Part shown: positions 15,823 to 18,384 of the stretch, piece after piece
Position numbering within the stretch: the first letter of the stretch is position 1
Layout of the letters: every line of letters starts with the position of its first letter
IMG/VR virus record: IMGVR_UViG_3300040801_003857
Coordinates: 1-26,551 of that record
DNA from: a virus
Strand: one strand, 5' to 3'
DNA: 26,551 nucleotides
Notes under the pieces: model-generated
Database searches by the model: none
Told to the model about the DNA's origin: nothing
The model's input: only the letters and a program-made list of their open reading frames with translations
Translations under genes and position numbers: made by a program

Positions 15823-16251
15823 TTATTTTCTCCCATCAAAAATAACAACCATTGAATCATGCATCCCTTTATTTTTTGTACTCCATTCCATTTTTGTGTT
15901 ATACCCATGAAAAGCTATTCTACCTTTGATAAATCTTATTTCTGGTTTTTCTGGTAGTATGATATCGTGGAATAGTTTAGTAGATGTTGAAACAGGAATA
16001 AGAAATACACACAACTTCCCTTTTTTTGACTGTTCAATTCCTTTTTTAACAAATGCCGTTTTCAGCTTCCGTGAATAAGGTGGGTTGATATAATTACGCT
16101 CTTTCCATTCTATTTCTAAACCATCAAAAATAGGTGTATTTTCGCTGTAAGGACAAGGATCAAAATTAAAATTAAACTCATTGTTCAATTTATTATAAAG
16201 CTCTGGTGGTGTTTTCCAATTATCACTTGATTTTAAATTTCTATTTTTCAT
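15823..16251 (-). CDS. Phage Dam-type DNA N6-adenine methyltransferase
   Basis: A 142-aa protein of the small phage Dam family. Visible elements are NWKTPPELYNKLNNEF (11-26), FDPCPYS (30-36), the catalytic motif NPPYS (56-60), then VFLIPVSTSTKLFHDII and PEIRFIKGRIAFHG, ending DSMVVIFDG, all in the usual order. It methylates adenine in short sites, probably protecting phage DNA from restriction. Slightly shorter than many relatives but with no key element missing. GGAGA lies 8 nt before the ATG and falls inside the end region of the IscB element, so the insertion appears to have kept or supplied its ribosome-binding site. Confidence 0.85.
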   Translation of the reverse strand: MKNRNLKSSDNWKTPPELYNKLNNEFNFNFDPCPYSENTPIFDGLEIEWKERNYINPPYSRKLKTAFVKKGIEQSKKGKLCVFLIPVSTSTKLFHDIILPEKPEIRFIKGRIAFHGYNTKMEWSTKNKGMHDSMVVIFDGRK

Positions 16252-16270
16252 CTGTTTTGTCTCCAGGATA

Positions 16271-16290
16271 CCCCGTCCTTCAGGGCGGGG
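16271..16290. repeat. Right-end subterminal hairpin of the IscB element
   Basis: CCCCGTCC-TTCA-GGGCGGGG, 8 pairs with one T·G. It lies about 30 bp after the iscB stop, inside a wider GTCTCC...GGAGAC inverted repeat. Confidence 0.75.
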
Positions 16291-16320
16291 AGGAATGGAG
16301 ACGCCCTTCGGCGAGAATTC

Positions 16321-17580
16321 TTATTCACAACAGGCCTCCATTTTAATTAATGTCAATTTTCTCGCAGCGATTCTTTTACAAGCATTCTTGATATTTAATG
16401 AATTATGAATCGCTTTCCCAAAAATATCTGATATAGCAAAATATCCCGATGATCTTTTGCCTTTCACGAAACCCAAAATTTTTTTTGATTTTGAGTAAAT
16501 TTGATCAAACTTTCTTAATCCATGACTTTTACCCGTAGGAATGGATTTTTCTGATCTAATACCCTTTGTTTGTTGATAGTCACCTTTTGAAACCAACCTC
16601 TTCGCAAAGTATTTGGTATTTGTCCTTACAGTTTCTCCTTGAGAAGCAATACAGACAGCATCTACATAATGTTTTTTAGTGAACCCCAAGGCATCTCTAT
16701 TAAACTTTGTGATGTACCCAAAGGTCTCTTCAAAATCTTCAAATTGTTTTGTAAGTTGTGACCTAAGCACAGAAACTTCTGTGGCATGTTTGGTCTGTTT
16801 TTGAACCTTTTGTTGTAACTTTAGCGATTCTCTTTCAGCAAATTTGTGAGCATGAATTTTGCTATGGCAACTATCACAAAGAGTGATGAGGTTTGTCGGA
16901 GCATCTGTACCACCATTTTTTTTAAAGACAATATGATGGACATGAAGCTTTAGGCCATTTTTATTTTTTCTGCATTTTTGGCATGTATGGTTGTCTCTGG
17001 CCAGGACAAAGGCTTTAGTATTGTAAAAGTTAAATTTTTGTCCTTTTTGGTAAGTCCATCCATATTTTTTTGATACAGATGGATTTGAAATTTTGTGGAT
17101 ATCAAAACTAGCCGTTTCCACAAACCATTTTGAAATTGGCAAAATTGATTCTAGAAACTTTTTTTCTCTCAAGTGGGCCATGACTTTGTGCTTTGTACTT
17201 GGTGGGAGTCTGTCCAACTTTATAGAGGCCTTACGATTGAAAAACCTTGGTTTTCTATACCTAATTTTTCTCCCTCTTCTCGATCTGCGATACATTCGCC
17301 GCTGCTCCATTTTGCTTTTAACATCCTCTCCTCTAAGTATCGTCTCCGATTGATATAGAGTCTGTCCGTTTGAGATAGCGGCCAGACCAATAACTTTTGA
17401 ACCACTATCCATACCTCCAATTACTACCTGTACTCTGTTAGCACAAGGATAAATTAACTGTAAGGTGAATGGGGTTCTATTTACAACTTTCGCTTTTCCA
17501 CTTTTAAGTAGTTTTCTGGCCTTAGATGGCGAGCAAGGCATGAGCGGTTTGCCTTGGCAATTTAAAATGTACACTACCAC
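16321..17580 (-). CDS. iscB: IscB RNA-guided nuclease (OMEGA family)
   Basis: A 419-aa protein with full IscB architecture. The PLMP domain is GKPLMPCSPSKARKLLKSGK (10-29). RuvC-I GGMDSGSKVIGLAAIS has D58. An arginine-rich bridge helix spans about 93-117. RuvC-II VETASFDIHKISNP has E155. The HNH domain (about 198-242) has C200/C203, HVHHI with H215/H216, GGTDAPTN with N230, and C235/C238/H239. RuvC-III KKHYVDAVCIA has H304 and D307. All expected catalytic residues are present, so it should be an active double-strand nuclease guided by the omega RNA. The start is GTG with GGAGGT 5 nt upstream. It lacks the REC lobe of Cas9, as expected for IscB. Confidence 0.93.
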   Translation of the reverse strand: MVVYILNCQGKPLMPCSPSKARKLLKSGKAKVVNRTPFTLQLIYPCANRVQVVIGGMDSGSKVIGLAAISNGQTLYQSETILRGEDVKSKMEQRRMYRRSRRGRKIRYRKPRFFNRKASIKLDRLPPSTKHKVMAHLREKKFLESILPISKWFVETASFDIHKISNPSVSKKYGWTYQKGQKFNFYNTKAFVLARDNHTCQKCRKNKNGLKLHVHHIVFKKNGGTDAPTNLITLCDSCHSKIHAHKFAERESLKLQQKVQKQTKHATEVSVLRSQLTKQFEDFEETFGYITKFNRDALGFTKKHYVDAVCIASQGETVRTNTKYFAKRLVSKGDYQQTKGIRSEKSIPTGKSHGLRKFDQIYSKSKKILGFVKGKRSSGYFAISDIFGKAIHNSLNIKNACKRIAARKLTLIKMEACCE

Positions 17581-17584
17581 TGTG

Positions 17585-17910
17585 TACCTCCATTGCTAAA
17601 GTAGTGCGTATCCAAAAGAGTAGGAGTCACTTGTGGAATCCGACCTCCCCTCGAGAAGTTAAAACAGGTTTTTTCCTGTGCAACACTGAGCATAGACTGG
17701 GTCTGCGTTTTATCTCTGTTTAATTGCACAGCACAGAGCAAGGGACTGGGGTGGCATCCCAAGGTGTGTTGTCTTTTCTCTGTTTTAACGTTTACTAACA
17801 TTGCTTAAATTCTCCTTCTGTTAGTTCTCTGGTCAACCTCTTGTGCTATTTCTAGCTCTATTTGTGTGTCACCACACAAGCCTCCTCCTTTAGGGGGAGG
17901 TGGATTGACC
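17585..17910 (-). ncRNA. Omega RNA (HEARO-type) upstream of iscB
   Basis: IscB guide RNAs are encoded just upstream of iscB, with the guide at the 5' end. On the minus strand this region folds well by eye. GGTCAA (17910-17905) and TTGACC (17836-17831) close a multibranch domain holding three hairpins: CCTCCCCC-TAAA-GGAGGAGG, TTGTGTG-GTGA-CACACAA and GCTA-GAAA-TAGC, the last two with GNRA loops. Further 3' are ACTAAC/GTTAGT, CTGTGCAA/TTGCACAG and ACAGG-AAAAAA-CCTGT stems. A 75-codon open frame (17574-17801) overlaps this region but looks like an RNA shadow: it conflicts with the stems and has no homology I recognise. The exact 5' and 3' ends are not determined. Confidence 0.75.
17881..17900. 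repeat. Left-end subterminal hairpin of the IscB element
   Basis: CCTCCTCC-TTTA-GGGGGAGG on the plus strand, 8 pairs with one T·G. It has the same geometry and loop size as the hairpin at the other end. Confidence 0.7.
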
Positions 17911-18092
17911 TTAATCCCTTAAGTATGTTAAATAGGGTGTCAAATGAGAAGAAAAGCGTATCAAGCGATTTTAGCAAGCAAACTTATACTTAAATGGAGA
18001 GTCTGTTCAAAAAGACTCTCCAAAAGATGCGTATAAGTTGTTGTCAAAATATTTTTGTTTAGTGATATATAGAGACCAGACTTAAAACCGCA
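17911..18092. other. Non-coding spacer with nested inverted repeats
   Basis: No gene is seen. An outer pair AACTTATAC (17981-17989) / GTATAAGTT (18031-18039) encloses an inner pair GGAGAGTCT (17996-18004) / AGACTCTCC (18013-18021), 9 perfect pairs each. No U-run follows on either strand. The first 15-20 bp next to the IscB element are the likely guide-encoding flank. Confidence 0.55.
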
Positions 18093-18337: not shown

Positions 18338-18384
18338 TATCAGGAAGATGAAAAACAGGACTCTCCGACAGTCAAACAGCACTT

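What the first reader, a model, noticed from the sequence alone, without database searches (positions are those of the whole stretch)
16262..17930. Intact IscB/OMEGA element in a phage genome
The nuclease keeps every expected catalytic residue (D58, E155, H215/H216, N230, H304, D307), the PLMP domain and the bridge helix. It has a GTG start behind a strong ribosome-binding site and a structured RNA upstream. Nothing looks decayed, so selection or recent arrival is implied. RNA-guided OMEGA nucleases carried by a phage next to its methyltransferase could act in phage competition.
Basis: partly seen in the sequence, partly recalled or inferred. Interest (0 to 1): 0.75.

Follow-up and report, generated by a model that had tools for sequence, protein, structure and literature searches.

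The report
RNA-guided IscB element at phage start codon
A phage carries an intact RNA-guided DNA-cutting mobile element (IscB with its guide RNA, a relative of the ancestor of Cas9) wedged exactly between the ribosome-binding site and the start codon of the phage's DNA methylase gene, and most of the related elements examined also sit in front of start codons.

Summary
On the minus strand lie an intact IscB gene (16321-17580; all catalytic residues conserved; dN/dS about 0.08 against its nearest relative) and a HEARO/omega RNA (17639-17909; 110 bits, cut-off 83) in a tailed-phage genome fragment; no TnpA is present. The element runs 16252-17909 and ends directly before ATGA, the start codon of the dam-type methylase. 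Joining the flanks gives AAGGGATTAAG-ATGA, a ribosome-binding site plus start codon, so the guide matches the displaced leader of dam and would target the same locus in element-free phages. A sister phage lacks both IscB and dam there. Of 33 related elements with an ATGR junction, 22 abut the start of an ORF of at least 100 codons (25% expected among ATGR sites outside gene interiors, p about 6e-7). In 7 the target's own ATGA completes the iscB stop codon; in 10 more iscB stops 3-6 nt before it. Empty sites in relatives of one bacterial host confirm the boundary to the base. IscB in phages and an NTGA target motif are known; the start-codon niche with likely translational coupling I did not find described, but the 2009 HEARO paper could not be read. 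Cleavage and expression are untested.

The parts
16252..17909 (-). whole IscB/HEARO element (boundary may shift one base to 16253-17910; both give the same empty site)
   Evidence: HEARO model position 1 at 17909; conserved 3' terminal hairpin then 7 nt then ATGA, same layout as in relatives; exact excision shown for relative L028
17910..17925 (-). predicted guide TACTTAAGGGATTAAG, outside the element; contains the displaced Shine-Dalgarno of dam (AAGGGA, 17915-17920)
   Evidence: position immediately 5' of the HEARO RNA (sequence); guide length of about 16 nt is taken from general knowledge of OgeuIscB, not measured
17639..17909 (-). omega RNA scaffold (HEARO, RF02033)
   Evidence: 110.4 bits, E 2.8e-22, full-length model match
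16321..17580 (-). iscB, RNA-guided endonuclease: PLMP, RuvC, bridge helix, HNH, conserved C-terminal region
16259..16302 (-). 3' terminal nested hairpin of the element (GTCTCC...GGAGAC around an inner hairpin); the GGAG at 16261-16264 sits 9 nt before the dam start codon but inside the outer stem
16248..16251 (-). ATGA: predicted target-adjacent motif and insertion site, also the start codon of dam
   Evidence: NTGA motif measured for the related IsrB (PMC9581776)
15823..16251 (-). dam-type phage N6-adenine methyltransferase, the invaded gene; start codon supported by the N-terminus conserved in L013 and L014
   Evidence: Pfam Dam 1.4e-20, PHROG 111, homologues at 72% with the same start

Best explanation
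This is an intact, TnpA-less IscB (OMEGA) element of the IS200/IS605 type inserted between the ribosome-binding site and the ATGA start codon of a phage dam gene. Most likely a transcript that starts upstream in phage DNA runs through guide, omega RNA, iscB and dam; IscB bound to this RNA recognises the guide-matching dam leader followed by ATGA, which exists intact only in genomes lacking the element, and cuts it, so that the element is kept or copied in by repair (homing or gene drive between co-infecting phages). The ATGA rule puts many such elements at start codons, where they displace the host gene's leader; in much of the family the iscB reading frame runs to the very edge and ends at or beside that start codon, which probably re-initiates translation of the host gene. 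Shown: the anatomy, boundary logic, conservation and start-codon statistics. Inferred: transcription, cutting, homing, reinitiation.
For: HEARO RNA and intact IscB; purifying selection. Joined flanks give AAGGGATTAAG-ATGA; the predicted guide plus motif does not occur elsewhere in the phage or in the sister loci tested, at up to 5 mismatches, apart from the element's own edge. 33 relatives with ATGR junctions: 22 ORFs of 100 codons or more start there, against 15% of ATGR sites in flanks, 4% that are start codons, and 25% of ATGR sites outside gene interiors; both the cellular/plasmid subset (14 of 17) and the viral subset (8 of 16) exceed expectation. RefSeq annotation independently puts CDS starts at the junction, or in frame within one codon of it, for L114, L115, L117, L118, L121, L142, L146. 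Exact empty sites at dppB/dppC in Desulfocicer relatives: joined flanks align through the junction without a gap at it. The iscB stop overlaps the target ATGA in 7 and lies 3-6 nt before it in 10 of 33. The element lies in the direction of the surrounding gene block 20198-4064.
Against: No phage with the exact empty site of this insertion was found; the closest sister L007 lacks dam as well. In the window itself iscB stops 69 nt before dam and its GGAG lies in a stem, so coupling is weaker here than in relatives. A third of relatives, and 5 of 8 distant plasmid IscBs, are not at the start of a long ORF. No activity data; no clear promoter.
Confidence: 0.85

Rival explanations
1. The element is a domesticated phage weapon: IscB is kept to attack competing phages or plasmids in trans, with the methyltransferase protecting the phage's own DNA as in restriction-modification.
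For: IscB under purifying selection; dam is adjacent.
Against: The guide is simply the flank at the insertion site, as in ordinary mobile copies; the neighbours of IscB differ among relatives, with a dam gene near IscB in only one other locus seen, upstream and not downstream (L144); dam-type genes were found without IscB beside them in L013-L016.
Confidence: 0.1
2. Start-codon positions merely reflect survivorship: insertions occur at any ATGA and only those outside genes survive, start codons being one of few such places. The phage copy is then an ordinary insertion without any special relation to translation.
For: Start codons are 25% of ATGR sites outside gene interiors, and several insertions are intergenic or inside genes (L036, L121).
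Against: Observed 67% exceeds 25% (p about 6e-7); insertion separates the gene from its ribosome-binding site, which should be harmful unless translation is restored.
Confidence: 0.35
3. The element is a passive fossil: insertion happened long ago and IscB is no longer expressed.
For: No TnpA in the window; no clear promoter pattern.
Against: Intact ORF, RBS, catalytic residues and RNA; dN/dS about 0.08. IscB genes without TnpA are the usual case (PMC9755519).
Confidence: 0.08

Closest known systems
IscB / OMEGA (HEARO) systems, e.g. OgeuIscB (PDB 7XHT, 7UTN)
   Same: PLMP-RuvC-bridge helix-HNH order, catalytic residues, HEARO RNA 5' of the gene with the guide at the RNA's 5' end.
   Different: 419 aa against 496; ATGA junction; carried by a phage at a dam start codon; not alignable to OgeuIscB beyond residue 315 by sequence search.
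IsrB OMEGA nickase
   Same: Target-adjacent motif NTGA (PMC9581776) equals the ATGA found here.
   Different: IsrB lacks the HNH nuclease domain; this protein has it.
TnpB-driven gene drive of IS200/605 elements in plasmids (PMC11870625)
   Same: Guide records the insertion site and the nuclease removes element-free copies of the replicon.
   Different: TnpB, not IscB; guide at the 3' end; shown for plasmids, inferred here for phage.
Phage homing endonuclease genes (PMC10448857, abstract only)
   Same: HNH nuclease between phage genes, expected to spread to element-free relatives.
   Different: RNA-guided and re-aimed at each new site instead of having a fixed protein-defined target.

Membership tests
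IscB (OMEGA) RNA-guided endonuclease | RRXRR/PLMP N-terminus, split RuvC with bridge helix, inserted HNH | tested here: met
   Pfam RRXRR and HNH, NCBIfam guided_IscB above cut-off, alignment to OgeuIscB
IscB (OMEGA) RNA-guided endonuclease | Catalytic RuvC and HNH residues | tested here: met
   D58, E155, H215, H216, N230, H304, D307 invariant in 20 sequences
IscB (OMEGA) RNA-guided endonuclease | HEARO/omega RNA immediately upstream | tested here: met
   RF02033, 110.4 bits, full length
IscB (OMEGA) RNA-guided endonuclease | Target-adjacent motif on the side of the insertion away from the guide | tested here: met
   ATGA directly after the element, ATGR in the 33 elements of the curated set; other relatives end at ATAA. 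Position only; recognition not assayed
IscB (OMEGA) RNA-guided endonuclease | RNA-guided DNA cleavage | not testable with these tools
   needs biochemistry
IS200/IS605-type mobile element | Subterminal hairpins, insertion beside a short fixed motif, no target duplication | tested here: met
   terminal nested hairpin; exact empty site without duplication in relatives of L028, not directly for this copy
IS200/IS605-type mobile element | TnpA (Y1 transposase) | tested here: not met
   no PF01797 in the window; non-autonomous, as most IscB elements; a few relatives (L003, L004, L044, L059) appear by eye to carry tnpA sequence after iscB
Cas9 / type II CRISPR | REC lobe, CRISPR array, tracrRNA | tested here: not met
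   419 aa matching IscB end to end over the nuclease core, no REC lobe, HEARO RNA instead of array and tracrRNA

The most novel reading that the evidence does not exclude
IscB/HEARO elements as a group occupy start codons: their ATGA target motif is the start codon, the guide records the displaced ribosome-binding leader, transcription is borrowed from the host gene's promoter, and host-gene translation is kept by letting iscB run to the element edge, where the target's own ATGA supplies or abuts the iscB stop codon (termination-reinitiation).
Probability: 0.5. Interest if true: 0.65.

Novelty: new member of a known kind. Interest (0 to 1): 0.5.

Why it matters
IscB is the lineage from which Cas9 arose, yet how these elements persist without transposase and how they tolerate sitting among genes is open. 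A start-codon niche with the element's own reading frame coupled to the invaded gene would explain both safe insertion and expression of a guide that lies outside the element, and it is easy to test. In phages, guide-encoded targeting of element-free relatives would make IscB a re-aimable homing nuclease.

Tried and rejected
Exact empty sites for the window and for three phage relatives were sought in IMG/VR and not found. No match of the locus in the INPHARED phage collection. A HEARO search in 299 genomes of the phylum of the Vibrio host gave only one new weak hit. The idea that elements carry a replacement ribosome-binding site at their end was rejected as a rule: only 2 of 33 have one, the window among them. 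Resemblance of the L007 remnant to TnpB by eye was not confirmed by Pfam or NCBIfam. Restriction-modification pairing of IscB with dam: not supported. Structure prediction was interrupted and then unavailable. The 2009 HEARO paper, the ISC-transposon paper and Altae-Tran 2021 are not in the library, so the claim of novelty for the start-codon pattern is provisional; from memory the 2009 paper reports ATGA or GTGA next to HEARO elements.

Full report
Observation. The minus strand of the window carries an IscB gene (16321-17580, 419 aa, GTG start behind GGAGG) and, between 17639 and 17909, a full-length Rfam HEARO RNA at 110.4 bits against a gathering score of 83. IscB matches NCBIfam guided_IscB at 331 bits (cut-off 175), Pfam RRXRR and HNH and the solved OgeuIscB structures at about 1e-40. 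The nearest relative, L035 from a deltaproteobacterial MAG, is 78% identical over the 206 codons available with dN 0.138 and dS 1.65, so the protein is under purifying selection. The window is the whole IMG/VR record and has terminase, portal, head and tail genes. No Y1 transposase is present.

Boundaries. On the minus strand the sequence reads ...TACTTAAGGGATTAAG | GTCAATCC [omega RNA, iscB, terminal hairpin] ...GGAGACAAAACAG | ATGAAAAATAG. The ATG is the start codon of a dam-type methyltransferase; homologues in L013 and L014 share its N-terminus. Joining the flanks restores AAGGGATTAAG-ATG, a Shine-Dalgarno at normal spacing. The predicted guide is therefore the leader of dam, and ATGA is the predicted target-adjacent motif. 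NTGA is the motif measured for the related nickase IsrB (PMC9581776). The guide plus ATGA does not occur elsewhere in this phage or in the sister loci tested, at up to five mismatches, other than at the element's own edge.

Sister phages. L007 (91% identical terminase) is colinear up to base 17936 and again from 15664, but lacks both IscB and dam and has about 385 unrelated bases instead. L006 is 100% identical but stops short of the locus. No contig with the exact empty site was found, so the pre-insertion state of this copy is inferred, not seen.

Wider pattern. I collected relatives from viral contigs, genome contigs and plasmids and located 5' ends by the HEARO model and 3' ends by the terminal nested hairpin followed by the first NTGR. 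The curation used hairpin and motif, not gene calls, but it was done by hand. In 33 elements with an ATGR junction, the ATG opens an ORF of at least 100 codons in 22. Among ATGR sites in the flanks of the same loci 15% do so; start codons make up 4% of all ATGR sites and 25% of those not inside a gene, giving p about 6e-7. Subsets: 14 of 17 cellular or plasmid, 8 of 16 viral. A later sample of eight distant plasmid IscBs gave three, one of them with a GTGA junction. RefSeq annotation, made without knowledge of this, starts a CDS at the junction, or in frame within one codon of it, in L114, L115, L117, L118, L121, L142 and L146. L121 is an insertion at what looks like an internal in-frame ATG. 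Another group of relatives ends at ATAA (L033, L047, L053, L054, L100), which cannot be a standard start codon and serves as a contrast.

Empty sites. For L028 (Desulfocicer, dppB/dppC) the two flanks joined at my predicted junction align over up to all 700 bases, without a gap at the junction, to element-free relatives at 75-78% identity; two relatives read ...GAATAGCAGGAAGAAA|ATGAAAAA. The ATGA there is the overlapping stop and start of two genes. This confirms the boundary rule to the base and shows no target duplication. The Vibrio site L027 aligns consistently but with nearby indels.

Coupling. In 7 of 33 elements the iscB reading frame leaves the element open and is closed by the target's ATGA (TG|A or A|TGA); in 10 more it stops 3-6 nt before the ATG; in 12 it stops 18-31 nt before; in 4 further away, including the window at 69 nt. 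Shine-Dalgarno matches of 4 nt or more occur in the displaced flank in 13 and at the element end in only 2, one of them the window's GGAG, which lies in a predicted stem. I infer that many of these elements keep the invaded gene expressed by termination-reinitiation. For the window copy this is less certain.

Mechanism. Because the guide lies outside the element at the 5' end of the omega RNA, the transcript must start in phage DNA. The element lies in the direction of the gene block 20198-4064, so read-through from phage promoters is the likely source. IscB with this RNA should cut element-free copies of the dam leader followed by ATGA, as TnpB does in a demonstrated plasmid gene drive (PMC11870625). 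Cleavage, transcription and homing are not shown here.

Novelty. HEARO nucleases in viral genomes are known (PMC9755519) and NTGA motifs are known. A full-text search for HEARO with start codon and insertion found nothing, but the original HEARO paper, which I recall reports ATGA/GTGA at these elements, was not available. The copy itself is a new member of a known kind; the start-codon and coupling pattern is the part worth a specialist's look.

Noticed in passing
L007:4251-4636: The sister phage has about 385 unrelated bases exactly where the window carries IscB plus dam; one reverse frame reads FDRNTNTAVNIKYRGDLAKIILYT, like a TnpB C-terminus by eye, but Pfam and NCBIfam gave no match.
   Followed up: partly
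L116:2247-2410: Pseudoalteromonas plasmid copy of the L114 insertion in which the 5' half of the HEARO RNA is replaced by a group II intron end; the iscB ORF remains.
   Followed up: partly
L121:1677-4711: IscB element inserted at an apparently internal in-frame ATG of a Cetobacterium plasmid gene; the two halves are annotated as separate genes.
   Followed up: partly
L146:491-3771: IscB element between parA and parB of a Deinococcus plasmid, at the parB ATGA start codon.
   Followed up: partly
17964-18060 and 18340-18370: Inverted GAGAGTC/GACTCTC stem-loops repeated upstream of the element and shared with L007.
   Followed up: no
L033, L047, L053, L054, L100: Relatives whose 3' junction reads ATAA instead of ATGR, suggesting a clade with a different target motif.
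   Followed up: partly
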